Of a stretch of DNA of 35,640 nucleotides, positions 8,518-21,620 are shown piece after piece (the stretch's first letter is position 1; the number at the start of each line of letters is the position of its first letter). Location of the stretch: the IMG/VR virus record IMGVR_UViG_3300044535_002285, positions 1 to 35,640 of that record. One strand, 5' to 3'. Made by a program: the position numbers and the translations under genes. The DNA is from a virus. Under the pieces are notes generated by a model. It made no database searches and was not told the origin of the DNA. It was given only the letters and a program-made list of their open reading frames with translations.

Positions 8518-8570
8518 ATGAGAAATAAATTAAATTTAAAAGAAGGAGAAGTCCAAAGAATCTTATCATT
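8518..8570 (+). repeat. Direct repeat, copy 1 of the shared 5' end
   Basis: The first about 50 nt of this gene recur almost unchanged at 9378-9430, including the start codon. Together with the matching 3' block this marks a tandem gene duplication. Confidence 0.85.
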
Positions 8571-9366
8571 ACATAAAAATGCTATATTAAAAGAGAGTGG
8601 TAAAAACATTTTGAATGAGGAAAGTACTTTTACTTTAAAATCAGATGTAAAATTCAAACCTAGCGAAACGAATCCGTCTTCTAACAAAATAAGGTTATAC
8701 CAAGGAACTAAGTTCAAAGTATCCACAAAAATTAAAAATTCATTAGTATCCACAAGAAAAGTTCTTGCAAATTTTCCTTCTTATGCTTCTGGATACCTTT
8801 CTACAAGTTATGAAGATAATAGGGCTTTTGTTGTATATAACTGTAAAACAAAAAATATTTATTTAATTGGATCTACAAATGAAGGAGCTAAAGAAGACTA
8901 TGACATTAACTCTAATAAAAAGGCTACTTGGAAAACTGGAGGAAGTATGCAATCTTTAGATAAATTGTGTGAAGAATCGGTTGTTAAAAATCAAGAGGTT
9001 ATCAAACCAGAACAGAAGAAACTAACAGATGATGAAAAAATTAAAAAGGCTAAAGCATGTGGACATAAAACTTGGGAAGATTATCAAGCATCAGGATGGA
9101 AATGTAAAAAAGAAAACCAAGGAGGAGAAACTGGAGATTTAAGAAATGGGACTAGTAGTAACAGATACACATTCGATTTCGAAACAATTATGAAAGCCAT
9201 TGACGATACAGGTAAATGCCCAAGAAGTGGAACAAGCGATCAAGCAGGTACTTCAGGAACGAGTGGAGTACAAGGAACTCAAGGTACAAGTAATGTTGGG
9301 GCTCCTGTTGTAATACAAAAACCAACTGTAACAAAAGATGACTTCTATCAATGGACAATGGATTAA
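8518..9366 (+). CDS. Gly-Thr-Ser repeat protein, tandem paralogue 1
   Basis: The 282-residue product has three parts. The N-terminal segment MRNKLNLKEGEVQRILSLHK ends in ILKE|S (23-27) and ILNE|E (31-35). A middle domain (about 35-160) is beta-rich with two Cys. The C-terminal part carries KAKACGHKTWEDYQ/GWKC, then FDFETIMKAIDDTGKCPRSG, a GTSGTSGVQGTQGTS repeat and the end DDFYQWTMD. Gly-Thr-Ser repeats are frequent in tail-fibre and structural proteins of Bacteroidota phages. There is no signal peptide. The next gene is a close paralogue; a virion role is likely but not shown. Confidence 0.85.
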   Translation: MRNKLNLKEGEVQRILSLHKNAILKESGKNILNEESTFTLKSDVKFKPSETNPSSNKIRLYQGTKFKVSTKIKNSLVSTRKVLANFPSYASGYLSTSYEDNRAFVVYNCKTKNIYLIGSTNEGAKEDYDINSNKKATWKTGGSMQSLDKLCEESVVKNQEVIKPEQKKLTDDEKIKKAKACGHKTWEDYQASGWKCKKENQGGETGDLRNGTSSNRYTFDFETIMKAIDDTGKCPRSGTSDQAGTSGTSGVQGTQGTSNVGAPVVIQKPTVTKDDFYQWTMD

Positions 9367-9376
9367 ATTTTAAAAA
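9186..9376 (+). repeat. Direct repeat, copy 1 of the shared 3' block
   Basis: The last about 180 nt of the gene at 8518 and a few bases beyond its stop recur at about 10020-10221 with few changes and a short insertion in the Gly-Thr-Ser region. The similarity here is far higher than in the middle of the two genes. Confidence 0.85.
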
Positions 9377-9377
9377 A

Positions 9378-10211
9378 ATGAGAAATAAATTAAATTTAAA
9401 AGAAGGGGAAGTCCAAAGAATATTGGGCTTACACAAACAAGCTATTTTAAAAGAAAATAATTATCAAGTATTGAATGAAGAACAAACATTTTCTCTAAAA
9501 GTTAATACAGATTTTAAACCATCAAGTAGTAATAGCGAGGATTACACTCTTAGACTTTATAGAGGTACAACATTTAAACCATCACCAAATATAAAAAATT
9601 CTTTAGTCACAGATAGACAAGTAAGAATTGATTATGTGTATGGTATGTTTAATTCTACTGCTGGTGCTTCCGGACTTAATAATAAGGCTTTTGTGGTTTA
9701 TAATTGTAAGACAAAAAGAATGTATACCGTCCAAAATACAAAAATAGATGAGTTTGATTATAAAAAAACAAATTGGACATATGATGCTAAGAATATGAGG
9801 TCCTTAGATAACTTGTGTTTAAATGCTGTTGAGACGGTAAAACCTGAGGTTGTGGTAAAACCTAAAACGGATGATGAAAAAAAAGAAAAGGCTAAAGCAT
9901 GTGGACATAAAACTTGGAAAGATTATCAAGCATCTGGATGGAAATGTAAAAAAGAAAACAAAAAAAATACATTTCTTGCTGCCGGAACAAGTGGAACTAG
10001 ATACTCATTTGATTTTGAGACAATAATGAAGGCAATTGACGATACAGGTAAATGTCCAAGAAGTGGAACAAGCGATCAAGCAGGTACTTCAGTAACGAGT
10101 GGAGTACAAGGAACTAGTGGAACTCAAGGTACAAGTGGTGTTGGTGCTCCTGTTGTAATACAAAAACCAACTGTAACAAAAGATGACTTCTATCAATGGA
10201 CAATGGATTAA
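9378..10211 (+). CDS. Gly-Thr-Ser repeat protein, tandem paralogue 2
   Basis: Paralogue of the preceding gene. ATG 9378 is chosen over the in-frame ATG at 9351 because it restores exactly the same N-terminus, MRNKLNLKEGEVQRILGLHK. The 277-residue product keeps the (I/L)xE sites (ILKE|N), the CGHKTWKDYQASGWKC element and a nearly identical C-terminal 65 residues, while residues about 35-160 have diverged strongly. The repeat reads GTSGTQGTSGV, with one more GTSG unit. A terminator follows directly, so 8240-10211 forms one unit. Confidence 0.85.
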   Translation: MRNKLNLKEGEVQRILGLHKQAILKENNYQVLNEEQTFSLKVNTDFKPSSSNSEDYTLRLYRGTTFKPSPNIKNSLVTDRQVRIDYVYGMFNSTAGASGLNNKAFVVYNCKTKRMYTVQNTKIDEFDYKKTNWTYDAKNMRSLDNLCLNAVETVKPEVVVKPKTDDEKKEKAKACGHKTWKDYQASGWKCKKENKKNTFLAAGTSGTRYSFDFETIMKAIDDTGKCPRSGTSDQAGTSVTSGVQGTSGTQGTSGVGAPVVIQKPTVTKDDFYQWTMD

Positions 10212-10216
10212 ATTTT

Positions 10217-10243
10217 AAAAAGGGAGTTTGACTCCCTTTTTTT
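10217..10243 (+). terminator. Rho-independent terminator
   Basis: AAAGGGAGT/ACTCCCTTT stem with a tiny loop and a T run, immediately after the stop of the second paralogue. Confidence 0.9.
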
Positions 10244-10259: not shown

Positions 10260-10267
10260 TATCTTTG
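10260..10267 (+). promoter_or_regulatory. Bacteroidota -7 element TATCTTTG
   Basis: TATCTTTG matches TAnnTTTG and ends 4 nt before ATG 10272. It follows a terminator, so a promoter is expected. The spacing implies a leaderless or nearly leaderless transcript. Confidence 0.7.
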
Positions 10268-10271: not shown

Positions 10272-10691
10272 ATGGAAAAAGTATTATATATCGTCAGAGG
10301 AATACCAGGTAGTGGTAAATCAACAATGGCTAAAATGTTAGTGGGTGAAGACTTTCTAGTTTGTGAGGCGGACAAATACTTTATAGATAAGGAAACAGGA
10401 GAATATAATTTTGATTTTACTAAAATCAAGGAAGCCCACAAATTCTGTCAAGATACAGTTGAGACATATATGAAGGACTCATTAGTCAATGACCAATTCT
10501 ATAGAGAGATTGCAGTATCAAACACATTCACTCAAGAATGGGAGATGGAACCTTACCTTGAATTAGCAAAGACATATGGGTACAAGACATTTTCAATCAT
10601 CGTTGAAAACAGACACGGAGGAGTAAACCAACATTCAGTTCCTGATGAAGTATTAACTAAAATGCGTGAGCGTTTTGAAATAAAATTATGA
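10272..10691 (+). CDS. P-loop nucleotide/polynucleotide kinase-like protein
   Basis: The 139-residue protein has Walker A GIPGSGKST (residues 10-18), then EADKYFIDKETGEYNF and AHKFCQ, the pattern of the AAA_33/N4BP2-like kinases related to the kinase domain of T4 polynucleotide kinase. It probably phosphorylates a 5'-OH of nucleic acid or a nucleotide; the substrate is not determined by sequence. The gene overlaps the phosphoesterase gene by 4 nt (ATGA), so the two products are likely made together. A kinase-phosphatase pair recalls the two activities of T4 Pnkp in RNA repair. Confidence 0.85.
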   Translation: MEKVLYIVRGIPGSGKSTMAKMLVGEDFLVCEADKYFIDKETGEYNFDFTKIKEAHKFCQDTVETYMKDSLVNDQFYREIAVSNTFTQEWEMEPYLELAKTYGYKTFSIIVENRHGGVNQHSVPDEVLTKMRERFEIKL

Positions 10692-11344
10692 TGAAATTTG
10701 ATAAATTATTAACGAGTGGTACGGTTTGGATTACATCCGATACTCACTACCATCACAAAAACATATGTCGAGGAGTTACTAATTGGAGAACTCAAGACGG
10801 TAAAATACCAACACACTCAACAAGGAATTTTCAAGACCTTGATGAAATGGATTCTGTGATCGTAAATAATATAAACCAAAAAGTTGGACCAAATGATACT
10901 TTAATACATTTGGGTGATGCTGCTTTTGGTGGATTCGAAATGATTGGTCAGTTCTTAGATCGACTTGTTTGTAAAAACATTCATTTAGTTTTAGGTAACC
11001 ATGATCAACACATTTTAAAAAATAGAGAGGATATCCAAGATAAGTTCTTATCTGTACAACATTACCTTGAGACTAGAATCGATGATGTTGATTTTGTTTT
11101 ATGTCACTACCCACTCCAAAGTTGGAACGGATTAAACAAAGGTGTGATCCATCTTCACGGACATGTCCATTTATCTGCTCAAAATAAATGGGGTAACGGA
11201 AAACGATTGGATGTTGGTATGGATGGTAACAGTATGTATCCATACAAAATAACTGAGATAGTTCACATGATGGATCGTCGTGAGATTGGGTCTGATTTGA
11301 GTAACGATCACCACCTTGATGATTTAGTTGGAGTTGTAGGATAA
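10688..11344 (+). CDS. Calcineurin-like metallophosphoesterase
   Basis: All family metal-binding motifs are present in the 218-residue protein: SDTHYHHKNI (residues 17-26), HLGDAAFGG (about 74-82), VLGNHDQH (about 101-108), CHYPLQSWNG and HLHGHVH. It should hydrolyse phosphomonoesters or diesters using two metal ions. Its coupling to the kinase gene suggests removal of phosphate or cyclic phosphate from nucleic-acid ends, though nucleotide or signalling-molecule hydrolysis remains possible. No signal peptide, so it is cytoplasmic. Confidence 0.93.
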   Translation: MMKFDKLLTSGTVWITSDTHYHHKNICRGVTNWRTQDGKIPTHSTRNFQDLDEMDSVIVNNINQKVGPNDTLIHLGDAAFGGFEMIGQFLDRLVCKNIHLVLGNHDQHILKNREDIQDKFLSVQHYLETRIDDVDFVLCHYPLQSWNGLNKGVIHLHGHVHLSAQNKWGNGKRLDVGMDGNSMYPYKITEIVHMMDRREIGSDLSNDHHLDDLVGVVG

Positions 11345-11358
11345 ACTATAACTCCAAC

Positions 11359-11366
11359 ATATTTAT
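11359..11366 (+). promoter_or_regulatory. Promoter-like ATATTTAT before the gene at 11371
   Basis: ATATTTAT ends 4 nt before ATG 11371, the same arrangement as at 691-699 and 6925-6938. No terminator separates it from the preceding gene. Confidence 0.5.
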
Positions 11367-11370
11367 TGTT

Positions 11371-12621
11371 ATGAGAAATATTGTTATCACCGAAAATCAA
11401 TTAAAATTAATTACAGAAGCTTTAGGGGTTCCTGAAAATATTTTGGACGCCGCCGACATGTTATACGATATTGTTGAAAAAGACATAAAATCAATAGATA
11501 GTGTCGAAGATGAATATGAATTTGATGGTGATATTGAATTTGAGTTAGGTGATAAGAAAAAAGTCAAAATTGATTCATATGAACTTAAAGTTAATATTGA
11601 AGAAATTGAAGACCAAGAAGGTGTCTTAGATATTATTTCTATGGGAATGGGAGGTGGTTTTGGATTTAATAGAGATGTTTATATGAAAGAAACAGAACCT
11701 TCAACAACTTTGGAGCTCAGTATAACTTTTGCTGTTGGTGAAAATTGGAGACCTGAACAACTGATTCAAAAAATGGAGGAGGAAAGAGATGAACATGTTT
11801 CATCTTTGGCTCATGAGATCAAACACAAATACGATAAGCAGTCAAAACAATTTGGTTTAATAGGACCTGATGCTGACTATCAGGCGACACAAAGAAGAGG
11901 TAATCTTGGAATACCGGTAATTGATAGAGTGTTCTACAGATACATGTATTACATTCATGCGATTGAAAATCTTGTTAGACCAACAGAGGTTGCTTACTCA
12001 ATGAAAAGAAAAAATATTACAAAATCACAATTTAAAGAATTTTTAGAAAATAATAGAGTTTATACAGAGTTGTTAGAAATTAAAAACTTTTCATTTGATG
12101 ATTTTATTACACAGTTAAAAGAACAAGAAGAAAGATTAGACAAACTTATTGAACATGTTAATGAGGATCCATCAAACATGACTATTGATGAAAAAATAAA
12201 CAGAGTGTTGGAAATTACTTATATTGATTTAGTAAACAACAGAATGGAATTGTTTACAATTATGACGGAGCATGCTATGGATGACTTTTTAAGATTTGGT
12301 TCGCAACTAGGGTTGTTGCCTAGTAATGCGGAAGAAAAAGTCAAACAACTTGAAAAGACAGACAAGATTAGAAATAAGTTTTTATCTCAAACAATTAAAT
12401 ATCAAAAAAACCCAACCAAGTTTTTTGAAAATGAATTTGAGAGATTTCAATATGTTGCAAACAAAATGTTAAAGAAAATATCTAAACTATATGCTATGGC
12501 TAAAGATGACGAACAAGTTAGTGAATCAATTCTAAATTGGGATCTACACCAACAAATCATGGAAAAAAAATACGGTAAAAGAAAAATTGAAACAAAATAC
12601 AAAAATTGGAATCTTAAATAA
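11371..12621 (+). CDS. HExxH zinc metalloprotease-like protein
   Basis: The 416-residue protein contains LAHEIKHKYD (HEIKH at residues 148-152), the zinc-binding and catalytic motif of zincin peptidases. A later Glu (E199 in AIENLVRPTE or E206) could be the third ligand. The C-terminal half is helical and charged. The N-terminus MRNIVITENQLKLITE|A looks like the (I/L)xE-terminated segments of the neighbouring proteins and of T4 internal head proteins, so it may be packaged in the virion or act during head maturation (inference). I do not recognise the peptidase family more closely. No signal peptide. Confidence 0.75.
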   Translation: MRNIVITENQLKLITEALGVPENILDAADMLYDIVEKDIKSIDSVEDEYEFDGDIEFELGDKKKVKIDSYELKVNIEEIEDQEGVLDIISMGMGGGFGFNRDVYMKETEPSTTLELSITFAVGENWRPEQLIQKMEEERDEHVSSLAHEIKHKYDKQSKQFGLIGPDADYQATQRRGNLGIPVIDRVFYRYMYYIHAIENLVRPTEVAYSMKRKNITKSQFKEFLENNRVYTELLEIKNFSFDDFITQLKEQEERLDKLIEHVNEDPSNMTIDEKINRVLEITYIDLVNNRMELFTIMTEHAMDDFLRFGSQLGLLPSNAEEKVKQLEKTDKIRNKFLSQTIKYQKNPTKFFENEFERFQYVANKMLKKISKLYAMAKDDEQVSESILNWDLHQQIMEKKYGKRKIETKYKNWNLK

Positions 12622-12979
12622 ACTATTGGTTTTTATACCTTTAATATTATTATCGTTTATTTTAACAACCCCCGAATACAGAGGAACCGCATCTTATTAT
12701 GGCCAACATTTGACAGGAAGATTAACATCCTCAGGAGAAAGATTTTATGCCGATAGTTTAACCGCAGCCCACAAGTATCTCAAGTTCGGAACAATTTTAA
12801 AAGTTACTAACACAATTAATGACTCAGTTTGTTATGTTAAGGTGAATGATAGATTACCAAAAAGTTCTAAGTTTATTATTGATCTAAGTTACGGAACGGC
12901 AAAAAAATTAAATTTTCTTAAAAGAGGAGTGATACCTGTAATTTTAATTCCTGTTGATACCGTAAAAATTGTTAAATAA
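12587..12979 (+). CDS. RlpA-like double-psi beta-barrel protein
   Basis: The frame starts with TTG 12587 (no ATG is available) and overlaps the metalloprotease gene by 35 nt. The N-terminus has a basic region and a hydrophobic stretch (KLLVFIPLILLSFIL), a signal peptide or anchor. The mature part matches the RlpA core: GTASYYG, TSSGERF, LTAAHKYLKFGT, VTNTIND, VKVNDRLP and IDLSYGTAKKL. RlpA proteins are septal lytic transglycosylases; the Asp of VNDR is kept. The SPOR domain of bacterial RlpA is missing, as in short family members. It likely cuts or binds peptidoglycan in the periplasm, helping lysis or wall remodelling. Confidence 0.85.
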   Translation: MKQNTKIGILNKLLVFIPLILLSFILTTPEYRGTASYYGQHLTGRLTSSGERFYADSLTAAHKYLKFGTILKVTNTINDSVCYVKVNDRLPKSSKFIIDLSYGTAKKLNFLKRGVIPVILIPVDTVKIVK

Positions 12980-13138
12980 TAATCTAAAGTTATAGTTTGC
13001 TCAATATATGGGGTCTATTAACAACTAATCTCAATTATATTAGTATTTATTTGTGAACTCAACCTGCCCGTGGAATATGGGGGTTTCCTAAAAAGATTCT
13101 TCAAGAGAGTAAATAATTTTATTTTATTTATTTTTACT

Positions 13139-15004
13139 ATGAAGAATATATTGATTGTATTTTTTGTCCTATTTTCATCTTTTTTATTTTCTCAATCATG
13201 TCTTCACACTATTCAACGAACTGACACATGGGGTGATGGTTGGAATGGAGGAGCGGTATCCGTTTCTGTTAATGGTGTAACCGTTTTATCTAATTTAAGT
13301 TGTGTGGGGTACGGACCTACTAGTTCTACATTTATGGCGGCAGTAGGGTCAACAATTAGAGTATTCCGAACCACTGCAGGACTTTATCCTACAGAAATGC
13401 GCATACGAGTTCTCAATGGTGCGGGAACCACCATAATCAATACTATTCAACCGGTTGCTGGAACCGCAACTACGGGAGGACAAACCGTATTAGCAAGTTG
13501 TGCGGGAGCTGTTGCAGGTCCATGCACTAATACAACTTTATATGGGTCTGCAATCGCACCATCAACACCAACAACTGTAATCATTAGTACTTGTCAATTT
13601 CAAGGAGAATATAGTCCAATTTATTCTTGTATTGCAGGACAAACATATCAATCAGCTTACAATTTAGGTGGATTCATAACGGTTAGATCAGGAACATTTA
13701 ATGGTACTGTAGTCGCCAGCGGAAACGCCCCATTAAATTGGGTTTGTCCGTCCTCAGGAACATATTTCGTTCATTACAACACAAATAATACTTGTGGTAC
13801 CGCTATGAACTGCGGAACATCATCTATTTCTTGTATAACTTGTTTACCACCACCACCACCATCAAATGATTTAGTTTGTAATGCAACAACAATATCTTGT
13901 GGTCAGACGATTGCAGGGACTACGGTTAATGCAACAACATCAGGTTATGGAGAATTGGGGTCTTGTGGTATTGTTCAGTCATATCCCGGTGTTTGGTATA
14001 AGATAATAGGAAATGGACAGATTATGACGGCATCACTTTGTGTTACCGCATGGGATAGTAAGATTTCTGTTTTTTCAGGAACCTGTTATTCACTTACATG
14101 TGTTGGTGGTAATGATGATAACGGACCTGGTTGTGGGGGAACTTCAGCATCATACTCTTGGAACTCGGTTAATGGGACAACATATTGGATTTTAGTTCAT
14201 GGTTATTCATCAAACTCTGCGTTTTCCGTGTCTTTAAATTGTGTTAATCCACCAACACCAGGACCATGTACAAACACAATAAATTATGGAGCTCAATTTA
14301 TGCCTGTGTTAGGTGGAGCACCATATGAATCTATTTATTGTCAATACGCTGGAGAATACTCAACATGGTATAATGCAATTTCAAATACACCTTATGTTGC
14401 AACTTCTTCAGTTGGAACAGATTGGATTACGGTTAGACAAGGGACTTACAATGGTACGGTTCTTGCAACAGGAACGGCAGTTGTTAATTTCACACCAAAC
14501 GCCACAGGAACAATATTTATTCATGTTAACACAAATGCTTATTGTGACATCCAATCAAGTTGTAGGGATGTTGCAATGTCAAGAATATCTGCATTACCTA
14601 TTGAGTTATTATATCTTGAAGGTAATAAAGAAAGTAATTATAATTTAATAAGATGGGCAACTGCGACTGAACATAATACCAGTCATTTTATTGTTGAAAA
14701 AAGTGAAGATGGACATGAATGGAATTCAATAGGTGAAGTTCAGGCTTCACAAAACTCCACTCAAGAAATTAAATACAATTTAATTGATCAAAATGTAAAA
14801 CAATTATACAATTATTATCGTCTTAAACAATATGATATAGACGGGATGAATCAAACTTACGGGCCAATTCAGATCAATAATACTGATAAAGTAATTACCG
14901 TAATAAAAAGAATTAACTTAGCAGGACAAGAAGTTAATGAAAACACCACAGGAGTTGTTATTGAAATTTATAGTGACGGATCTATAAAAAGAACAATAAA
15001 ATAA
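13139..15004 (+). CDS. Secreted multidomain protein with T9SS-like C-terminal region
   Basis: A 621-residue protein from ATG 13139; the in-frame GTG at 13070 would bury the signal peptide. Residues 1-19 (MKNILIVFFVLFSSFLFSQS) are a Sec signal. Then come a Cys-containing beta domain (TDTWGDGWNGG), two repeats starting GPCTNT with TVRxGTxNGTV cores (about residues 122-235 and 376-490), a PPC-like domain between them, and a C-terminal region (ALPIELLYLEG, YYRLKQYDIDG, then INLAGQEVNENTTG and IEIYSDGSIKRTIK) like those of T9SS-exported Flavobacteriales proteins. It should be exported to the host surface. Function unknown; adhesion or surface masking is possible. Unusual in a phage and probably taken from a host. 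Confidence 0.85.
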   Translation: MKNILIVFFVLFSSFLFSQSCLHTIQRTDTWGDGWNGGAVSVSVNGVTVLSNLSCVGYGPTSSTFMAAVGSTIRVFRTTAGLYPTEMRIRVLNGAGTTIINTIQPVAGTATTGGQTVLASCAGAVAGPCTNTTLYGSAIAPSTPTTVIISTCQFQGEYSPIYSCIAGQTYQSAYNLGGFITVRSGTFNGTVVASGNAPLNWVCPSSGTYFVHYNTNNTCGTAMNCGTSSISCITCLPPPPPSNDLVCNATTISCGQTIAGTTVNATTSGYGELGSCGIVQSYPGVWYKIIGNGQIMTASLCVTAWDSKISVFSGTCYSLTCVGGNDDNGPGCGGTSASYSWNSVNGTTYWILVHGYSSNSAFSVSLNCVNPPTPGPCTNTINYGAQFMPVLGGAPYESIYCQYAGEYSTWYNAISNTPYVATSSVGTDWITVRQGTYNGTVLATGTAVVNFTPNATGTIFIHVNTNAYCDIQSSCRDVAMSRISALPIELLYLEGNKESNYNLIRWATATEHNTSHFIVEKSEDGHEWNSIGEVQASQNSTQEIKYNLIDQNVKQLYNYYRLKQYDIDGMNQTYGPIQINNTDKVITVIKRINLAGQEVNENTTGVVIEIYSDGSIKRTIK

Positions 15005-15027
15005 TTTCTATATCCAAATTAATTTCT

Positions 15028-15035
15028 TATCTTTG
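15028..15035 (+). promoter_or_regulatory. Bacteroidota -7 element TATCTTTG
   Basis: TATCTTTG ends 4 nt before ATG 15040, identical in sequence and spacing to the element at 10260-10267. It starts the unit of small genes from 15040. Confidence 0.7.
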
Positions 15036-15039
15036 TTCC

Positions 15040-15267
15040 ATGTGGACAACTAAAGAAACTAAAAGAGAATATTGTGGCGTTGAGATCGTCAAGTATGAAG
15101 GTTCCAAGATGAAGGACTCTTTTAGAAAAAAAGACCCAAGAACATTTCAAAGTGGAGATAGTAAGTTCACCAAGTGGCATTCCTACGAAGTAACATTTGA
15201 TGGTATTAAATATGATTTCGACAAGTTGAAGGATGCAAAAGAATTTATTGACTCAAAATTAAAATGA
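15040..15267 (+). CDS. Small basic protein of unknown function (75 aa)
   Basis: Begins MWTTKETKREYCGVEIVKYEG and is rich in Lys and Asp, with beta-strand-like pairs (WHSYEVTFDGIKYDF) and a C-terminal helix. No known motif. First gene of a tightly packed unit; overlaps the next gene by 4 nt (ATGA). Confidence 0.75.
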   Translation: MWTTKETKREYCGVEIVKYEGSKMKDSFRKKDPRTFQSGDSKFTKWHSYEVTFDGIKYDFDKLKDAKEFIDSKLK

Positions 15268-15455
15268 AAAAACCTTGTAAAGAGTGTCCACACTCTATTC
15301 GTAATCGTCATAATGATATGATTGTTGAGTTTGGTCGTAGGACTGGTAAACAACATAATTGTCATATGACCGAAGGGGTGAAAGATTTGTGGAATGTTAA
15401 AGACAAAAAATTAGAATGTTATGGCTCAAAGAGAGATAATTTACGGAGTGTGTGA
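15264..15455 (+). CDS. Small Cys/His protein, probably zinc-binding (63 aa)
   Basis: Contains CKECPHSI (residues 5-12), NCHM (about 33-36) and ECY (about 52-54), a Cys/His set that could bind one zinc ion. The CxxCP...CH...C layout resembles the DUF6283 family of short phage and bacterial proteins; this identification is tentative. ATGA overlap with the gene before, 35-nt overlap with the gene after. Confidence 0.7.
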   Translation: MKKPCKECPHSIRNRHNDMIVEFGRRTGKQHNCHMTEGVKDLWNVKDKKLECYGSKRDNLRSV

Positions 15456-15642
15456 TAAGACAGGAAGTTGTGATTCTTACTTCGGTTTCTTCAAAACAAA
15501 AGAAGATGCTGAACACGAAGTTGAAATTCAGGCAAATAGACTCAAAGAAGACTTGGGTTGGTTAGATATACAAATACAATCTGACAGGGCTTTGATGGGC
15601 GGTAAATTAGTAGTAGTAATTCATTCATATGTTCTTAGATGA
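15421..15642 (+). CDS. Small protein, paralogue of the gene at 18765
   Basis: The 73-residue product shares IYGVxDxT, CDxYFGxFK, a helical middle and the ending IxIHxxxxR with the 81-residue product at 18765, so the two are paralogues. No function is known. Both are the second or third gene of small-gene units, and both overlap the following gene by 4 nt. Confidence 0.75.
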   Translation: MAQREIIYGVCDKTGSCDSYFGFFKTKEDAEHEVEIQANRLKEDLGWLDIQIQSDRALMGGKLVVVIHSYVLR

Positions 15643-15902
15643 TTAAAAAATATTTGATTGTTTTTTTCTCGGCACTTATATTAGAGATTGGAAGTACATT
15701 TTACATTACTGTAGTGGCCGACAAAAACTATACTGGAATGTTATTTTTTGCATTCATCGGACCATTCTTATCATTACCTTTCGTGGGGTTTATGGTTGAG
15801 TCAAAAACTTGGGAGGAAAGAATAATATTGGCATTATGTTCGGGACTTGGATATTTGTTTGGGTCCGTTGTTGTAATAATATTTTTAGAGTTAATGAAAT
15901 GA
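15639..15902 (+). CDS. Small integral membrane protein (87 aa)
   Basis: Three likely transmembrane helices: residues about 4-24 (LIVFFSALILEIGSTFYITV), 33-52 (MLFFAFIGPFLSLPFVGFMV) and 63-85. Little else can be said. Coupled by 4-nt overlaps on both sides. Confidence 0.75.
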   Translation: MIKKYLIVFFSALILEIGSTFYITVVADKNYTGMLFFAFIGPFLSLPFVGFMVESKTWEERIILALCSGLGYLFGSVVVIIFLELMK

Positions 15903-16261
15903 AAATAATAGAAACTAAATTTGGAACCTATATGGAAAGAGAAGATGACTCTACAAAATTGACTGGTGATAAAATCAAGGTCTTTGTGGAAAGATTAAAA
16001 AAACTTGGAATTGAAATTAAACTTCAGGGTAACTTCCCTTGGGTTTATATTGATGAAATCTGTGGTATTAAAGTGAAAGAGAGATTATATGGTAATCACG
16101 GTTTTACTTTGATATTCTTACCGGGTAGGATCGATAGTCCACCATCAGATTTTACTGATATTCCCGAGACCTTCAAACTAATACGAAAGTATAACAGAGA
16201 AGCTCTTTTAGTGAAAATGATGAGGGATTCTGAAAAAGACGGATTGTATGACATTGAATGA
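15899..16261 (+). CDS. Protein of unknown function (120 aa)
   Basis: ATG 15899 overlaps the preceding stop (ATGA) and is chosen over an in-frame upstream ATG at 15809 inside the membrane-protein gene. The product starts MKIIETKFGTYMEREDDSTK; it is a charged soluble protein with LKKLGIEIKLQGNFPWVYID and a C-terminal helical end. No recognised motif. Confidence 0.75.
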   Translation: MKIIETKFGTYMEREDDSTKLTGDKIKVFVERLKKLGIEIKLQGNFPWVYIDEICGIKVKERLYGNHGFTLIFLPGRIDSPPSDFTDIPETFKLIRKYNREALLVKMMRDSEKDGLYDIE

Positions 16262-16637
16262 GTTAAGGGTGGGTAGTATTGTAACCCACCCACTTTTTGG
16301 AACACCGACTAATGTTAAAGCGATTGCCTTTAACGGACTTTATATTGGAACCAAAGATGGTCTACCTCTTCACATCGATGACTTCAAACCGGTTGAAATA
16401 ACTGATGAGATTTTGGAGTTACTTCATTTTGTTAAGATGAAAAACACCGCACCTGGTATTGGTGAGTTTGAATGGTGGGAGACAGATGATACATCACTCA
16501 CACACATACATAAAGGTTTGTATGGTATTGAGGGGTTAAGTGGTATTAAACCAATGAGATATGTTCACGAATTACAAAATGCGTATTTTGTGATAACAGG
16601 AAAAGAATTGAATACAGAAAAATTATTATATTTGTAA
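16248..16637 (+). CDS. ELRxG-type hypothetical protein of Bacteroidota phages and prophages
   Basis: Begins MTLNELRVGSIVTHPLFG and ends MRYVHELQNAYFVITGKEL. This layout (ELRxGN/S start, a short SH3-like beta region, a DFKPVEITDEILELL middle and the YVHxLQNxYFxxTGxEL end) belongs to a widespread family of hypothetical proteins in Bacteroidota and their phages. The function is unknown. Overlaps the preceding gene by 14 nt. Useful mainly as a host-range marker. Confidence 0.8.
   Translation: MTLNELRVGSIVTHPLFGTPTNVKAIAFNGLYIGTKDGLPLHIDDFKPVEITDEILELLHFVKMKNTAPGIGEFEWWETDDTSLTHIHKGLYGIEGLSGIKPMRYVHELQNAYFVITGKELNTEKLLYL
16627..16634 (+). promoter_or_regulatory. Bacteroidota -7 element TATATTTG
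   Basis: TATATTTG ends 6 nt before ATG 16641 and overlaps the last codons of the preceding gene. It would give the cREC/RNA ligase unit its own promoter. Confidence 0.55.
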
Positions 16638-16640
16638 AAA

Positions 16641-17051
16641 ATGGAAAAAGTAAAAATTTATTTAGATGATGTAAGAACACCTGTTGACCCAAGTTGGATA
16701 GTTGTTCGTTCTTACGATGAATTTGTAAGTAAGGTAAATGAGATTGGTTTAGAGAATACTGAACTAATTTCATTTGATCACGACTTGGGTGATAGTGCGA
16801 TGAAAGAATGGTTACACGGTGTAGTAAGAAACTATGCGATCAACTATGATAACATCACTGAAAAGACTGGTATGGATTGCACCAAATGGTTGGTTAATCA
16901 GTGGATGGACGGAAAACCTGTTGTTAGAGTTGTTGTTCACTCAGCAAATGCTGTTGGTGCTGCTAATATGATGGGATATATTAACAATTATCGACACATC
17001 AACAAACTACCACAAAATTGTGATAGAGTATTTTGGGAACACACAATATAA
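16641..17051 (+). CDS. Cyclic-phosphate-processing receiver-like protein (cREC)
   Basis: A receiver-fold protein of 136 residues with LDDVRTP (residues 8-14), ISFDHDLGD (43-51) and VVVHSANAVGAANMMGYI (97-114). This is the pattern of the cREC family, which has been predicted from genomic context to act on cyclic phosphates at broken RNA ends. The catalytic claim comes from comparative genomics, not from biochemistry that I can cite here. Two genes downstream lies an RNA ligase in the same unit, which supports an RNA-repair role. Confidence 0.85.
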   Translation: MEKVKIYLDDVRTPVDPSWIVVRSYDEFVSKVNEIGLENTELISFDHDLGDSAMKEWLHGVVRNYAINYDNITEKTGMDCTKWLVNQWMDGKPVVRVVVHSANAVGAANMMGYINNYRHINKLPQNCDRVFWEHTI

Positions 17052-17061
17052 AAAAATAGTT

Positions 17062-17325
17062 ATGGAATTAGAAAAATTTGAACAAGCAAAAAAAGTTAAA
17101 GAAAACCTTGATAGATTGGAAAGACAGAAGCGTAAATTGGAATCCGCTTTAGAATCTTGTTCTTTAAATGTGACTATTGAATTTAACGCATCAAAGGTAT
17201 TTCTCTCAAGAAAAGATGAGGTTAGTGTTTATAGTAAAGAAGCTATTAAAGAAATGATTTCTAAAGAACTTGAAAGGTTGAATGGTGAAATAGAATTAGT
17301 TAAAGAAGAATTTGAAAAAGTATAG
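17062..17325 (+). CDS. Coiled-coil protein (87 aa)
   Basis: ATG 17062 (MELEKFEQAKKVKENLDRLE) is preferred over the in-frame start at 17020, which lies inside the previous gene. The protein has two helices rich in Lys and Glu flanking a short beta segment (LNVTIEFNASKVFL), like an antiparallel coiled coil. Located between cREC and the RNA ligase; it may be a partner of either, but there is no direct evidence. Confidence 0.75.
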   Translation: MELEKFEQAKKVKENLDRLERQKRKLESALESCSLNVTIEFNASKVFLSRKDEVSVYSKEAIKEMISKELERLNGEIELVKEEFEKV

Positions 17326-17328
17326 AAA

Positions 17329-18462
17329 ATGGAAAATTTAAATAGTGTATGTTATGTTGGTGTAATCGGAGAGATCAGACCAATAGAAGGGGCAGATAAC
17401 ATAGAACTTGCAATAGTTGGTGGTTGGCAAGCAATTACCAAGAAAGGTGAATATGAAATAGGTAATAAGGTTGTTGTTGCAACTACTGATGCTGTAATTC
17501 CTGTTCAGTTATCTGACTTGATGGGAGTGACTGGTTACTTAAGAAAAGGTCAAAGAGTTAGAACCGTTAAACTTCGTGGAGTTTACTCTGAGTGTTTATT
17601 GATCCCATTCAAATACTTGGCACCAAAGTCTTTGGAAAACAATGTAAGTGAAGGTCATGACATGATGGGTATTTTAGGTGTAACCAAATACGAACCCCCA
17701 GTTAAGATGGTTGAGATGAGTGTTGGAGGTAGAAAATTCAAATACCACCAAAACCCTAACTTCCATATCTACTATAAGTTCCCTAACTTGAAGAATGTAC
17801 CTGATTTATTTACTGAAGAAGATGATGTATCGATAACTCGTAAACTTCACGGAACTAATGCTCGTTATGGTATTGTAAGAAAGAAAAAACTTACCGTATT
17901 AGATCGTATCAAAAAATTCTTTGGAAACAAATGGGTTGAATTTGATTATGTATATGGATCACACAATGTTGAAAAAGGTTCTACTTCTCAAGGGTTTTAC
18001 TCAACTGATGTGTGGAGAACCGTGGCGGAAGAATACAACATCCAAGATAAGTTGTGGAACTATGTAAAAAAACATTATACTCCTGAAAGTTTGGGAAGTG
18101 GTATTGTAATCTATGGAGAAATCTACGGACATGGAATTCAAAAGAACTACGAATACGGTTTAACTGATATCCGTTTTGCTGGTTTTGATGTTGAGATAGA
18201 TAGTGTTTACCAACCATTCTTCACCGAAAGAGTTATATTTAAGGAATTAGATTTGCCAAAAGTAGATTTATTATACACTGGTCCGTGGAATAAAGAGATT
18301 CAAGACATGTTTGTATTCGGTAATTTCATTGGAGCAACTAAAGTTCCTCACGAAGGAATTGTTGTGAAATGCTTAAGTGGTGATCGTCACAAAGTGGCAA
18401 AGGTGATTAATCCTGATTACTTGATCTACGGAGAAAAAAATAATGTTGGTGACTCCCATTGA
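17329..18462 (+). CDS. RNA ligase, Rnl5/DraRnl-like, with N-terminal OB-fold domain
   Basis: Seals RNA breaks by the ATP-dependent adenylyltransferase mechanism. The nucleotidyltransferase motifs are clear: motif I RKLHGTN with the adenylated Lys at 172, motif III YGEIYGHGI (262-270), IIIa FAGFDV (283-288), IV HEGIVVK (341-347) and V around KVAKVINPDY (355-364). Residues 1-120 form an N-terminal beta-rich OB-like module (VCYVGVIGEIRPIEGADNIE, KLRGVYSE), as in Deinococcus radiodurans RNA ligase rather than T4 Rnl1 or Rnl2. Length 377. The stop codon lies inside the terminator hairpin. It shares a unit with cREC, arguing for repair of host-inflicted RNA damage. Confidence 0.92.
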   Translation: MENLNSVCYVGVIGEIRPIEGADNIELAIVGGWQAITKKGEYEIGNKVVVATTDAVIPVQLSDLMGVTGYLRKGQRVRTVKLRGVYSECLLIPFKYLAPKSLENNVSEGHDMMGILGVTKYEPPVKMVEMSVGGRKFKYHQNPNFHIYYKFPNLKNVPDLFTEEDDVSITRKLHGTNARYGIVRKKKLTVLDRIKKFFGNKWVEFDYVYGSHNVEKGSTSQGFYSTDVWRTVAEEYNIQDKLWNYVKKHYTPESLGSGIVIYGEIYGHGIQKNYEYGLTDIRFAGFDVEIDSVYQPFFTERVIFKELDLPKVDLLYTGPWNKEIQDMFVFGNFIGATKVPHEGIVVKCLSGDRHKVAKVINPDYLIYGEKNNVGDSH

Positions 18463-18480
18463 TGGAGTCACCTTTTTTTA
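18448..18480 (+). terminator. Strong terminator overlapping the RNA ligase stop codon
   Basis: GGTGACTCC/GGAGTCACC stem (9 bp) with a 7-nt loop and seven T. The upstream arm encodes the last residues of the ligase and the loop holds the TGA stop, so coding sequence and terminator share bases. Confidence 0.95.
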
Positions 18481-18504
18481 TTATCATTTAAAAAAGAAAA
18501 AATT

Positions 18505-18765
18505 ATGGCAACATTTTGGACACAGGCAGAAGTAGATTTATCAGTTGATGATATCTATGAGAATTTATCGGACCGAGAGGTTTTGAAATTAGTTGATTTA
18601 TTTGTTGAAGAAGGTTTGGTTATCTCAACTAACACAAGTAAAAACGAAAGTATGAGTTTTTTAGATGAGGAATGGAAAAAAACACTTTTGAATCTAATGA
18701 ACAACAGACACAGACTTTCAAACGAAGATGAAGAAACAATTAAAACAATTGCAAATAAATTATAA
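18505..18765 (+). CDS. Acidic helical protein of unknown function (86 aa)
   Basis: Begins MATFWTQAEVDLSVDDIYEN, with LSDREVLKLVDLFVEEGLV and a C-terminal helix. Soluble and acidic, with no known motif. Its stop shares one base with the start of the next gene (TAATG). Confidence 0.75.
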   Translation: MATFWTQAEVDLSVDDIYENLSDREVLKLVDLFVEEGLVISTNTSKNESMSFLDEEWKKTLLNLMNNRHRLSNEDEETIKTIANKL

Positions 18766-19010
18766 TGGCAAAAGACAACGACCTGATCTATGGGGTTTAC
18801 GATAGAACAAGAGGAGTGGGTGGTTGTGATGACTACTTTGGGTACTTCAAAAAAGAATCAGACGCGAGAACAGAAATGAAATCTCAATTTGAACACTTAA
18901 AAACAAAAAACCCAAAAGAAACTCTGAAACTACATAAAGACAGAGTTGTGAGAATGAAAGATAAAACAGAAGAAATATTAATAATTATACACCCAATTTT
19001 AGTACGATGA
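18765..19010 (+). CDS. Small protein, paralogue of the gene at 15421
   Basis: The 81-residue product repeats the IYGVYDRT, CDDYFGYFK and IIIHPILVR elements of the protein at 15421, with an extra VGG before the Cys and a different middle. Gene order around both copies is partly alike (small acidic or Cys-containing gene before, 4-nt overlap with the gene after). Function unknown. Confidence 0.75.
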   Translation: MAKDNDLIYGVYDRTRGVGGCDDYFGYFKKESDARTEMKSQFEHLKTKNPKETLKLHKDRVVRMKDKTEEILIIIHPILVR

Positions 19011-19996
19011 GAGAGGACCAAATTGATGACTACATCCAAGAGTTAAAGATGATTGAAGAGATGGAAAATATTAGAATACCAAACGATTATATTGAAACAA
19101 CTAGTTATGATGATGACAAGATTGTAACTAATTCACCAACATGTTGGGGGACATTACAAGATGAAGAGTTTGTACCGGCATTTAAATCAGTTGCTAAAGT
19201 ACCATCAGGTATTTACGAAGTTGTGTGGAACAGACAATTAAACCAACACACATTAAAGAAACAACCATTCAAAACGGATGAGTTGTATCAGTTACCATCA
19301 TATGAGATCACAGATATTTTAAAAGACATTCAAAACTTTTGGGATCGTAAAGACAAGTATAAAGAATATAACTTTGTTCACAAACGAGGTATTCTAATGT
19401 ATGGTGAGCCAGGTTGTGGTAAGTCAGGTATCATTCAGTTGATCTCAAAACAATTGATTGAGAATGATGGTATCATCATTAACATTAAAGATCAGGAAGA
19501 TATTGATTACTTCATGGATTTTATTGCGACATTCAGAAAGATTGAACCAGAACGACCATTGATCGTTTTGTTGGAAGACATAGATTCAATTGCGGGTGAG
19601 AACAGCCACTCAACAAGTAGATTGTTAAACATCTTGGATGGTGTAAAACAGATTGAAGATGTTGTATATATTGCGACAACCAACTATCCTGAGAAATTAC
19701 AGGATCGTATTACAAATAGACCATCTCGTTTTGATAGACGATACAAAGTTGAACTACCAAACGATGAGATTCGTGAAGCATACATTCGTCACAAACTTAC
19801 TGATGAAGATATTAAGAATGTTGATATTGAAGAGTGGGTAAAAAGAACAGACGGAATGTCACTTTCACACTTGAAAGAAGTTGTAATTTCAACTATAGTT
19901 ATGGGAAGAGAATTTGAGGAAGTGATGGATAACCTCGAAGGATTGAAGAAAGCACCATCAATTAAAGGATCAGGAAAAGTAGGATTTGGACGATGA
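19007..19996 (+). CDS. AAA+ ATPase
   Basis: The 329-residue protein has a complete classic AAA module: Walker A GEPGCGKS (133-140), Walker B IVLLEDID (186-193), sensor 1 IATTNYPE (222-229) and an arginine-finger segment NRPSRFDRRY (237-246). Residues 1-120 form a protein-specific N-terminal domain. Similar single-AAA proteins act as remodellers of protein or nucleoprotein complexes. No protease or helicase domain is fused. It may work with ClpP at 31063 or in replication, but context does not decide. 4-nt overlaps at both ends. Confidence 0.93.
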   Translation: MREDQIDDYIQELKMIEEMENIRIPNDYIETTSYDDDKIVTNSPTCWGTLQDEEFVPAFKSVAKVPSGIYEVVWNRQLNQHTLKKQPFKTDELYQLPSYEITDILKDIQNFWDRKDKYKEYNFVHKRGILMYGEPGCGKSGIIQLISKQLIENDGIIINIKDQEDIDYFMDFIATFRKIEPERPLIVLLEDIDSIAGENSHSTSRLLNILDGVKQIEDVVYIATTNYPEKLQDRITNRPSRFDRRYKVELPNDEIREAYIRHKLTDEDIKNVDIEEWVKRTDGMSLSHLKEVVISTIVMGREFEEVMDNLEGLKKAPSIKGSGKVGFGR

Positions 19997-20145
19997 AAAA
20001 AGGAATTTATTATTTACCGTTATTTTTAATTTTGTTATTTGTAATGGGGGGAACATTTTATGTTGAGGATCGATTAGGATTTGTAATGTCAACATTATCA
20101 ATGTTATTATTAGGTGAAGTTTATTATTTAAGATTCATAAAATAG
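19993..20145 (+). CDS. Two-helix membrane miniprotein (50 aa)
   Basis: ATG 19993 overlaps the AAA+ stop (ATGA); TAG at 20143-20145. Begins MKKGIYYLPLFLILLFVMGG and has a second hydrophobic helix (GFVMSTLSMLLLGEVYYL). Function unknown; possibly a membrane partner of the ATPase, by position only. Confidence 0.65.
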   Translation: MKKGIYYLPLFLILLFVMGGTFYVEDRLGFVMSTLSMLLLGEVYYLRFIK

Positions 20146-20182
20146 AAAAGATTATTTATACTTTCAAAACAAAAAAGAAAAC

Positions 20183-20617
20183 ATGACAATTAAACAAGCA
20201 CTTAAGCAGAAAAACAAGTTGGTTAAAAACATCACTGAGAACACGAAGTTGATGCAACAACACAACTCAATTGAAGTTGGAAACCAAAGACCATACAGCT
20301 CATCGATGTTGTATAATGAGATCCAAAAAGACACAAAAGAATTGGCGTCTTTGAAAGCGAGAATCCACATTGCAAATACACCTGTGATGGAAGACATCTT
20401 TTGGATGTCAGAAATGAAATCAACAATTGCAGCCCTAAAGAAAATGGACTGTACTGAAGGAAAATCAAATCGTGACCGTTACCGAATGGAAAGCGAAATA
20501 GTTTTAACTTCAGAAATATCATTGGTTAATAGAAATCAAATGATTAAATTGATGGAAACAAATATTGAAGAAATCCAAGACAAGTTGGACACCTTCAATG
20601 CAACCACAGAAATTTAA
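20183..20617 (+). CDS. Helical protein of unknown function (144 aa)
   Basis: Begins MTIKQALKQKNKLVKNITEN. Almost entirely helical, with long Lys/Glu/Gln-rich heptad-like stretches at both ends and a central LKARIHIANTPVMEDIFWMSE. It weakly recalls the DIP1984/septicolysin-like helical family, but I would not assign it. An AT-rich TTATTTAT lies 23 nt upstream and could be its promoter. It is followed by a 326-bp region without genes. Confidence 0.75.
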   Translation: MTIKQALKQKNKLVKNITENTKLMQQHNSIEVGNQRPYSSSMLYNEIQKDTKELASLKARIHIANTPVMEDIFWMSEMKSTIAALKKMDCTEGKSNRDRYRMESEIVLTSEISLVNRNQMIKLMETNIEEIQDKLDTFNATTEI

Positions 20618-20797
20618 TATGGTTTGTGGATAGGGTGAGAAAGTGATGGTTGTTCTACAATTAGTATCCGACTGGATGGATAATTGATAAAGGTAACGAA
20701 CTGACTCAAACTGAAATCTCAAACACTCAAAAGTCATTTGATTAAATCTTAAAACTCTTTTTTTTAACCTATTTTTGACTCTTGAAACAAATCATAT
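20618..20797. other. Non-coding stretch of unknown role
   Basis: No frame longer than about 13 codons with a start exists here on the plus strand, and the minus-strand frame across it has unlikely composition. Near its 3' end TTG (20782-20784) stands 20 nt upstream of CATCTTTG (20805-20812), a near match to the -33/-7 layout of Bacteroidota promoters. It may be the 5' part of a structured RNA or a long untranslated region. Confidence 0.4.
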
Positions 20798-20824
20798 AAA
20801 CCCCCATCTTTGTGGTGGGGGTTT
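20798..20824 (+). terminator. Hairpin 1 of four; terminator-like
   Basis: AAACCCCCA/TGGGGGTTT stem of 9 bp with a 9-nt loop, followed by TTAAAA. It could end transcription from the gene at 20183. Confidence 0.75.
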
Positions 20825-20826
20825 TT

Positions 20827-20881
20827 AAAAGACCCCATCTTAATTGATGGGCTTTTAGGACCGTTATCCGTTAGGGTAACG
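20827..20881 (+). other. Hairpins 2 and 3 of the structured intergenic region
   Basis: Hairpin 2: AAAAG then CCCATC pairs with GATGGGCTTTT (20827-20856) with a two-base bulge. Hairpin 3: CGTTATCC pairs with GGGTAACG (20862-20881), with one G-U pair and a GTTA loop. Neither is needed for termination, so they suggest a folded RNA between two terminators. Confidence 0.5.
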
Positions 20882-20885
20882 ATTT

Positions 20886-20917
20886 AAAGGGGGAATTCGC
20901 TACTCCCCCTTTTCTAT
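20886..20917 (+). terminator. Hairpin 4 of four; terminator
   Basis: AAAGGGGG/CCCCCTTT stem of 8 bp with an 11-nt loop and a T-rich tail (TTTTCTATTTT). It ends the structured region just before the 25-aa microprotein gene. Confidence 0.8.
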
Positions 20918-20943
20918 TTTAGATAAACTATTATTATTGTTTG

Positions 20944-21021
20944 ATGATTATAGGGATTTTTTATATATTAGCAGTGTTAGTAATTGGTGTTATAGGGAAA
21001 CGCAAAAAAATATTCAAATGA
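20944..21021 (+). CDS. Transmembrane microprotein (25 aa), coupled to the HAD gene
   Basis: ATG 20944 to TGA 21019-21021. The peptide starts MIIGIFYILAVLVIGVIGK and ends in a basic tail KRKKIFK, a textbook single-helix membrane microprotein. The stop overlaps the ATG of the HAD phosphatase gene (ATGA at 21018), so it may also work as a leader that couples translation. The composition and exact overlap support it, but at 25 codons chance cannot be excluded. Confidence 0.5.
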   Translation: MIIGIFYILAVLVIGVIGKRKKIFK

Positions 21022-21620
21022 AAGTTTTATTCTTAGATAATGATGGTGTAATCTGTCTCTCCAATAACTGGGGTGGACGAACAAAAAAATGGGCAAAATA
21101 CCGATCAGCAAATCCTGAATCTTCCTCAAACATAAAGGAGGCTCCTGTTGAATATCGTTTTGATGATTTTGATAATAAGGCAATTAAGGTCTTAAATGAG
21201 ATCATCGAAGAAACAGGTTGTGAGATCGTTGTAAGTTCTGATTGGAAATTACATGCAACACTTGAAGAACTTGGTGATTACTACGAAAGTCAGGGGATCA
21301 TCAAACGACCAATCGCTTTAACACCGAACATTCAGAATTGTACTGCTCATAGTGATTTATTTATTTGGTCACCACGATGGGAGTTAGAACAAACACGAAC
21401 CATTGAGATTCAACAATACTTACATGATCATCCTGAGGTTACCCATTGGGTTTCAGTTGATGATTTAAATATGGGTAAGAATGGTGAACCTTGGAAAGAT
21501 GCTTGGGCAATAACTAATTTTGTTCTAACACCGAAATCAAGTGAGGGAATCAAACAATGTGGAATTAAGGAAAAGGTTATCAAATTTTTAACAAATGAAG
21601 AACATAAGACAAATATTTAA
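21018..21620 (+). CDS. HAD-superfamily phosphatase of the RNA-repair (HAD_SAK) type
   Basis: ATG 21018 gives a 200-residue protein starting MKVLFLDNDGVI, which carries the HAD DxD catalytic motif (Asp7, Asp9). CEIVVSSDWK supplies the second motif (Ser/Thr) and WVSVDDLN the acidic third motif. This layout matches the HAD domains found in 'Swiss army knife' RNA-repair proteins and resembles the phosphatase half of T4 Pnkp. Expected activity: removal of phosphate from nucleic-acid ends or nucleotides. The in-frame start at 20937 is rejected because it would run through the microprotein region. Confidence 0.82.
   Translation: MKVLFLDNDGVICLSNNWGGRTKKWAKYRSANPESSSNIKEAPVEYRFDDFDNKAIKVLNEIIEETGCEIVVSSDWKLHATLEELGDYYESQGIIKRPIALTPNIQNCTAHSDLFIWSPRWELEQTRTIEIQQYLHDHPEVTHWVSVDDLNMGKNGEPWKDAWAITNFVLTPKSSEGIKQCGIKEKVIKFLTNEEHKTNI

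What the first reader, a model, noticed from the sequence alone, without database searches (positions are those of the whole stretch)
10272..21620. Dispersed RNA end-healing and sealing kit
Five gene products fit RNA repair: P-loop kinase (10272) coupled to a calcineurin-like phosphoesterase (10688), a cREC protein (16641) in one unit with an Rnl5/DraRnl-like RNA ligase (17329), and a HAD_SAK-like phosphatase (21018). An Smr protein (23010) may join them. T4 uses Pnkp and Rnl1 to reverse tRNA cleavage by host anticodon nucleases; here the same jobs appear split into single-domain proteins with a different ligase and a predicted cyclic-phosphate processor. This could be an unrecognised counter-defence system.
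Basis: partly seen in the sequence, partly recalled or inferred. Interest (0 to 1): 0.8.

Follow-up and report, generated by a model that had tools for sequence, protein, structure and literature searches.

The report
Phage RNA end-repair gene set
This fragment of a large phage genome carries separate genes for a kinase, a phosphoesterase, a predicted cyclic-phosphate processor and an RNA ligase that recur together in many otherwise unrelated phages, so they probably form a kit for rejoining cut RNA, a type of system already predicted in the literature but never tested in this form.

Summary
The window (an IMG/VR phage fragment) encodes a polynucleotide-kinase-like P-loop protein overlapping a calcineurin-like phosphoesterase (MPE), a cREC protein in one run with an Rnl5/DraRnl-like ligase, and a HAD_SAK phosphatase; catalytic residues are conserved. 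The kit is not dispersed by nature: in distant relatives it is compact (MPE-kinase-ligase-cREC-HAD within 6 kb). In loci picked only for the kinase, the commonest neighbours are the MPE, an RNA ligase and cREC. Kinase and MPE lie within 3 kb in 29 of 33 large records (1.1 expected), in either order; kinase and an RNA ligase within 10 kb in 35 of 35 (5.1 expected). The ligase is exchangeable (Rnl5-like or T4 Rnl1-like). HAD is a looser member; Smr is not one. The kinase model is nearest to T4 and C. thermocellum polynucleotide kinases (Z 14.6, 13.3), but T4's Arg38 is replaced by Phe. The class is not unrecognised: Iyer et al. 2021 and 2022 predicted such phage RNA repair, including a cREC-ligase-kinase-calcineurin neighbourhood in V5-like phages. 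New here: the sirtuin- and KptA-free form with an Rnl5-like ligase in Bacteroidota-type phages, and the linkage statistics. Counter-defence stays inferred.

The parts
10217..10241 (+). terminator-like hairpin just before the kinase, left border of the two-gene unit
10260..10267 (+). TATCTTTG, Bacteroidota-type -7 promoter motif 12 nt before the kinase start
   Evidence: motif consensus from memory
10272..10691 (+). stand-alone P-loop kinase, polynucleotide-kinase fold (N4BP2/AAA_33-like): predicted RNA 5'-OH kinase
10688..11344 (+). calcineurin-like metallophosphoesterase (phrog_547), overlaps the kinase gene by 4 nt: predicted 3'-end healer
11327..11358 (+). terminator-like hairpin at the end of the phosphoesterase gene, right border of the two-gene unit
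16627..16634 (+). TATATTTG motif 14 nt before the cREC start
16641..17051 (+). cREC protein, predicted cyclic-phosphate processing receiver domain (PF20274)
17062..17325 (+). small coiled-coil-like ORF between cREC and ligase; seen mainly in the window's clade
17329..18462 (+). Rnl5/DraRnl-like ATP-dependent RNA ligase: N-terminal OB domain, C-terminal nucleotidyltransferase, predicted catalytic Lys172
18448..18472 (+). terminator-like hairpin closing the cREC-ligase unit
21018..21620 (+). HAD_SAK_2 phosphatase (PF18143), looser member of the set

Best explanation
A phage-encoded RNA end-healing and sealing pathway split into single-domain proteins. Proposed order: a metal-independent host ribonuclease, probably one that cuts tRNA anticodons, leaves a 2',3'-cyclic phosphate and a 5'-OH. 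The MPE and/or cREC opens the cyclic phosphate. The MPE, or the HAD where present, removes the remaining phosphate to give a 3'-OH. The kinase phosphorylates the 5'-OH. The Rnl5-like ligase charges its active-site Lys172 with AMP, activates the 5'-phosphate and seals the RNA. Shown here: family identities, conserved catalytic residues, linkage of kinase, MPE, cREC and RNA ligase across divergent phages, and the predicted kinase fold. Inferred: substrates, order of steps, tRNA as target, and the counter-defence benefit. The ligase is the exchangeable part (Rnl5-like here, Rnl1-like elsewhere); the kinase and MPE are the constant pair.
For: Whole-record positions: kinase-MPE within 3 kb in 29/33 records (random 1.1, largest of 2000 runs 6); kinase-RNA ligase within 10 kb in 35/35 (5.1); kinase-cREC 21/26 (2.9); ligase-cREC 21/26 (3.7). 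Census of loci seeded by the kinase only, 26 non-redundant: most frequent neighbours are MPE 19, Rnl1-type ligase 15, cREC 11, PF09414-type ligase 10; an RNA ligase of either kind in 20; MPE on the kinase's strand 19/19. Both gene orders (kinase-MPE, MPE-kinase), sometimes with cREC between. Compact MPE-kinase-ligase-cREC-HAD in L080, MPE-kinase-ligase in L071. The same kinase beside Rnl1 and MPE in isolates of Aeromonas, Pseudomonas and E. coli phages; in E. coli phage CarlMeissner SIR2-cREC-Rnl1-kinase-MPE lies close to tRNA genes. Kinase model: T4 Pnkp Z 14.6 (rmsd 2.6, 134 aligned), CthPnkp 13.3, O-phosphoseryl-tRNA kinase 12.8; a profile search also finds Pnkps. P-loop Lys and Asp34 in 242/242, Arg114 in 239/242 loci. 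Ligase motifs KLHG, YGE, FD, HEG and KVAK hold the invariant residues; OB match to Naegleria Rnl.
Against: No biochemistry. T4 Arg38, which binds the acceptor, is Phe in 236 of 242 kinases, so the substrate could differ. The MPE's nearest solved relatives are an Aquifex protein of unknown function and LpxH, not a Pnkp phosphatase, and its model is weak (pLDDT 67). MPE and cREC also occur without kinase or a detected ligase (immuto, phi17:2). The kinase also occurs in Halomonas and Flammeovirga loci without the rest within 6 kb. Six of 26 kinase loci have no ligase nearby. HAD linkage is weak (7/26 with the kinase within 10 kb, 3.1 expected). No tRNA genes in the window.
Confidence: 0.72

Rival explanations
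1. The same enzymes work on the phage's own RNA or on general RNA turnover (maturation or recycling of phage tRNAs and mRNAs) rather than against a host defence.
For: Arrays of tRNA genes lie 2.5-5 kb from the kinase in L112 and L137 and close by in L353 and immuto.
Against: Most of the 26 kinase loci have no tRNA gene within 10 kb; an end-healing kinase and ligase pair is typical of damage repair (established for T4 Pnkp/Rnl1, from memory).
Confidence: 0.14
2. MPE and cREC clear cyclic nucleotide or ADP-ribose alarm signals made by host defences; the kinase and ligase are neighbours in a counter-defence region.
For: cREC is predicted for ADPr cyclic phosphates as well (PMC9503650); MPE and cREC occur together without kinase or ligase in immuto and phi17:2; cREC lies under Nudix-annotated genes in other phages; a Nudix gene lies at 6941 in the window.
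Against: The kinase and a ligase are among the most constant partners of the MPE; no SIR2 or KptA in the Bacteroidota-type records.
Confidence: 0.1
3. Kinase and MPE act on free nucleotides or on DNA ends (nucleotide metabolism or DNA repair).
For: Iyer et al. 2022 call the V5-type protein a nucleotide kinase; T4 Arg38 is not conserved; DNA ligase and nucleotide genes are near some copies.
Against: Structural ranking puts Pnkps and a tRNA kinase above sugar and nucleotide kinases, though by small margins; neighbours are RNA-type ligases of two different families.
Confidence: 0.09
4. The proximity is accidental, a by-product of common descent among the sampled phages.
For: Many records in the window's clade share long synteny; searches return the closest 80 hits only.
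Against: Order changes, ligase replacement and loss of all other synteny while the set persists.
Confidence: 0.03

Closest known systems
V5/Mydo-type phage RNA-repair neighbourhood (Iyer et al. 2022, PMC9503650, section 3.7.3)
   Same: cREC, RNA ligase, a small P-loop kinase and a calcineurin-like enzyme; verified here in E. coli phage CarlMeissner.
   Different: V5-type has a sirtuin and a T4-like Rnl1; the window's relatives have neither SIR2 nor KptA and use an Rnl5-like ligase. The paper says 'nucleotide kinase' and 'occasionally' calcineurin-like; here the kinase-MPE pair is the constant core.
Jumbo-phage RNA repair sets (Iyer et al. 2021, PMC7824862)
   Same: ATP-dependent RNA ligase with kinase, cREC, stand-alone SAK-HAD and sometimes calcineurin-like phosphatase; proposed as repair after host RNase attack.
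   Different: That survey names mainly Rnl1, Rnl2 and RtcB ligases; an Rnl5-like ligase set of Bacteroidota-type phages is not described in the passages read.
T4 Pnkp + Rnl1
   Same: 5'-kinase, 3'-end phosphatase and ligase; the kinase shares the Pnkp fold (Z 14.6).
   Different: Stand-alone kinase without fused HAD; Arg38 replaced by Phe; MPE and cREC added; different ligase family.
Bacterial Pnkp (C. thermocellum) / Pnkp1-Rnl-Hen1
   Same: Kinase plus calcineurin-type phosphoesterase plus ligase as one toolkit (from memory); kinase Z 13.3.
   Different: Separate genes, no Hen1 noticed, different ligase type; relation of the MPE to the Pnkp phosphatase domain not shown.
Human N4BP2 (B3BP)
   Same: Similar kinase motif pattern (comparison from memory); N4BP2 carries a PNK and an Smr domain in one protein (PMC1947948).
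   Different: Here kinase and Smr are separate genes, and Smr does not follow the kinase in relatives.

Membership tests
Rnl5 (DraRnl/NgrRnl) RNA ligases | N-terminal OB domain followed by C-terminal nucleotidyltransferase | tested here: met
   PF21189 OB 13-93, PF09414 166-360; Naegleria Rnl OB match 9-126
Rnl5 (DraRnl/NgrRnl) RNA ligases | conserved nucleotidyltransferase motifs I, III, IIIa, IV, V | tested here: met
   K172/H174/G175, G263/E264, F286/D287, E342/G343, K355/K358 invariant in 22 sequences
Rnl5 (DraRnl/NgrRnl) RNA ligases | score over the curated TIGR02306 cut-off | tested here: not met
   128.5 bits against 151.15: a divergent relative, so called Rnl5-like only
Rnl5 (DraRnl/NgrRnl) RNA ligases | seals 3'-OH/5'-phosphate RNA | not testable with these tools
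   needs an assay
Pnkp-type polynucleotide 5'-kinases | Pnkp kinase fold | tested here: met
   T4 Pnkp Z 14.6, CthPnkp 13.3, above tRNA kinase 12.8 and PFK-2 12.6; related kinases share the fold, so not exclusive
Pnkp-type polynucleotide 5'-kinases | P-loop Lys/Ser, catalytic Asp, lid Arg | tested here: met
   K16, S/T17, D34 in 242/242; R114 in 239/242; mapping to T4 K15/S16/D35/R126 by motif
Pnkp-type polynucleotide 5'-kinases | acceptor-binding Arg (T4 Arg38) | tested here: not met
   Phe in 236/242 at the motif-aligned position; residue role from memory
Calcineurin-like metallophosphoesterases | DxH...GD...GNHD...H...GHxH metal site | tested here: met
   all invariant in 13 sequences
Calcineurin-like metallophosphoesterases | 2',3'-cyclic phosphodiesterase / 3'-phosphatase as in bacterial Pnkp | not testable with these tools
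   nearest structures 1xm7 and LpxH do not decide the substrate
cREC | PF20274 domain with receiver-type aspartates | tested here: met
   E 1.7e-21; D9, D10, D46, D48, S101 invariant in 7 sequences
cREC | cyclic-phosphate hydrolysis | not testable with these tools
   experimentally uncharacterized as of PMC9503650
HAD_SAK_2 phosphatase | PF18143 with DxD and DD motifs | tested here: met
   E 1.5e-20; D7, D9, S73, D148, D149 invariant
Sirtuin/KptA NAD-dependent RNA repair | SIR2 or KptA present | tested here: not met
   SIR2 only in the E. coli phage, KptA in none of 43 records; the window itself is a fragment

The most novel reading that the evidence does not exclude
A widespread phage module in which a constant kinase-phosphoesterase pair plus the untested cREC enzyme heals RNA ends without NAD, and accepts either of two ligase families as its sealing step, giving phages a plug-in repair line matched to different RNA-cutting defences.
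Probability: 0.35. Interest if true: 0.65.

Novelty: new variant of a known kind. Interest (0 to 1): 0.47.

Why it matters
tRNA cleavage is a common outcome of bacterial immunity, yet in phages the repair answer is worked out mainly for T4. The linkage shown here ties an uncharacterised domain (cREC) and an unassigned phage phosphoesterase family (relatives in 1,231 phage records) to RNA end repair. It also points to a related cluster in a laboratory E. coli phage (CarlMeissner) where the idea can be tested directly.

Tried and rejected
Smr as a member: found in 3 of 43 records. A fused Pnkp-like protein: a 983-aa ligase-containing ORF in G020 showed no kinase or phosphoesterase part on reading; not followed by a family search. 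phrog_8238 hints at a kinase-ligase fusion, but only its profile was seen. NAD-dependent 2'-phosphate removal: no KptA, SIR2 only in the E. coli phage. 2H phosphoesterases as the cyclic-phosphate step: over the cut-off in only 2 of 43 records, both lacking the kinase. tRNA-gene proximity as a general signature: absent from most loci. Bacterial genomes as a source: only 13 hits, most without the rest of the set. The alignment-seeded ligase scan added mostly close relatives. Burroughs and Aravind 2016 was not held. The ClpP-seeded background set is not fully independent, because a ClpP-like gene is itself a neighbour of the kinase in 8 of 26 loci.
Full report
What is there. The window is a 35,640-base IMG/VR phage record, probably a fragment, with no tRNA genes. 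The five reported proteins are real and lie where stated. The kinase (10272-10691) matches phrog_2071 and polynucleotide-kinase families; the phosphoesterase (MPE, 10688-11344) matches phrog_547; the cREC protein (16641-17051) matches PF20274; the ligase (17329-18462) matches TIGR02306, PF09414 and the PF21189 OB domain; the HAD (21018-21620) matches PF18143. The kinase and MPE genes overlap by four bases and sit between two terminator-like hairpins, with a TAnnTTTG motif 12 nt before the kinase. cREC, a small ORF and the ligase run together and end in another hairpin.

Active sites. In 242 loci with the kinase the P-loop Lys and Asp34 never vary and Arg114 is kept in 239; the position that corresponds to T4 Arg38 is Phe in 236 (correspondence by motif). 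In 13 MPEs the full DxH, GD, GNHD, H, GHxH metal site is invariant. cREC keeps D9, D10, D46, D48 and S101. The HAD keeps D7, D9, S73, D148 and D149. The ligase keeps K172 and the residues of the other nucleotidyltransferase motifs. Nothing looks inactivated.

Kinase identity. A profile of the family finds T4 Pnkp, C. thermocellum Pnkp and fungal kinases weakly in PDB. An AlphaFold2 model (pLDDT 84) is nearest to T4 Pnkp (Z 14.6, rmsd 2.6 over 134 residues), then CthPnkp (13.3), then O-phosphoseryl-tRNA kinase (12.8), then PFK-2 (12.6). So it looks like a polynucleotide kinase by fold. By the Arg38 test it is not a strict T4-type member, and it resembles the N4BP2 branch (motif pattern from memory; N4BP2 has a PNK and an Smr domain). 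The MPE model is weaker (pLDDT 67); its neighbours are an Aquifex protein of unknown function and LpxH, so its substrate is open.

Linkage. Ligase-seeded viral loci show the window's synteny fading with distance while kinase, MPE and cREC stay by the ligase. In L071 the order is MPE-kinase-ligase with almost no gaps; in L080 MPE, kinase, ligase, cREC and HAD span about 6 kb. Loci chosen only for the kinase show MPE beside it in either order. A census without preselected families, on 26 non-redundant kinase loci, ranks MPE (19), an Rnl1-type ligase (15), cREC (11) and a PF09414-type ligase (10) as the four most frequent neighbours; 20 of 26 have an RNA ligase, and MPE lies on the kinase strand in 19 of 19.

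Statistics. In 48 large records, after removing near-duplicates, kinase and MPE lie within 3 kb in 29 of 33 records that have both (1.1 by random placement), kinase and an RNA ligase within 10 kb in 35 of 35 (5.1), kinase and cREC in 21 of 26 (2.9), ligase and cREC in 21 of 26 (3.7). HAD is weaker: ligase-HAD 12 of 27 within 10 kb (4.2), kinase-HAD 7 of 26 (3.1). HAD is nevertheless directly next to set members in G010, G019, G020, G021 and G038. HAD-seeded loci have kinase, cREC and MPE as neighbours in 3-4 of 9 non-redundant cases. Random placement ignores shared ancestry, and the records were mostly found through the kinase or the ligase, so these figures overstate independence; the changed gene orders and the changed ligase are the better argument.

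Ligase exchange. Records with the window-type ligase lack PF09511; many others carry a PF09511 (Rnl1-type) ligase beside the kinase and MPE. Isolated phages show the same: Aeromonas phiA009, Pseudomonas Pyxpy02 and E. coli CarlMeissner.

Mechanism. The most economical reading is end healing followed by sealing: phosphoesterases (MPE, cREC, sometimes HAD) make a 3'-OH, the kinase makes a 5'-phosphate, the ligase joins. That fits damage by metal-independent RNases such as anticodon nucleases. The target RNA and the benefit against host defence are inferred. Two facts remain awkward: MPE and cREC travel together without kinase or detected ligase in Flavobacterium phage immuto and Cellulophaga phage phi17:2, and the kinase occurs alone in some bacteria.

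Prior knowledge. Iyer et al. 2021 (PMC7824862) predict jumbo-phage RNA repair from ATP-dependent ligases, kinases, cREC, SAK-HAD and calcineurin-like enzymes. Iyer et al. 2022 (PMC9503650) describe a V5/Mydo neighbourhood with sirtuin, T4-like ligase, cREC, nucleotide kinase and occasionally a calcineurin-like enzyme. The E. coli cluster found here fits that description (SIR2 confirmed). The Bacteroidota-type records have no SIR2 or KptA. Hence: a new variant of a known, predicted kind.

Verdict. Observation confirmed, interpretation partly supported. The set is real and conserved, not inherently dispersed, not unrecognised, and without Smr.

Noticed in passing
window 10272, 15040, 16641, 25067, 32092: TAnnTTTG lies 10-14 nt before five gene starts (three at exactly 12); random positions give 0.6. 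This suggests a Bacteroidota host and perhaps leaderless mRNAs; the kinase and cREC genes are among the five.
   Followed up: partly
window 3341-4474: A glutamine-synthetase-like gene (PF00120 E 6e-19, PF03951 E 2e-9) on a phage, near a DNA methylase and a Nudix gene.
   Followed up: no
window 28190-29254: 354-aa protein made largely of about ten diverged repeats of the type 'IENGVKE', no family match.
   Followed up: no
window 8518-9366 and 9351-10211: Tandem paralogues with nearly identical C-terminal tails ending in VTKDDFYQWTMD.
   Followed up: no
L351 (Flavobacterium phage immuto) 6850-10003: MPE and cREC about 1 kb apart directly after four phage tRNA genes, with no kinase or RNA ligase detected in the genome.
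   Followed up: partly
window 25574-26155; L077, L079, L080: Protein of unknown function that lies between ligase and cREC in distant relatives, though about 7 kb from the ligase here; no Pfam or PHROG match.
   Followed up: partly
L085 10449-11015 and seven other kinase loci: A ClpP-like protease gene recurs within 10 kb of the kinase in 8 of 26 loci; the window has a ClpP at 31063.
   Followed up: no
L112 and L137, 2.5-8 kb before the kinase: Arrays of 18-19 tRNA genes in near-identical order upstream of the kinase in two phages whose gene order around it otherwise differs.
   Followed up: no
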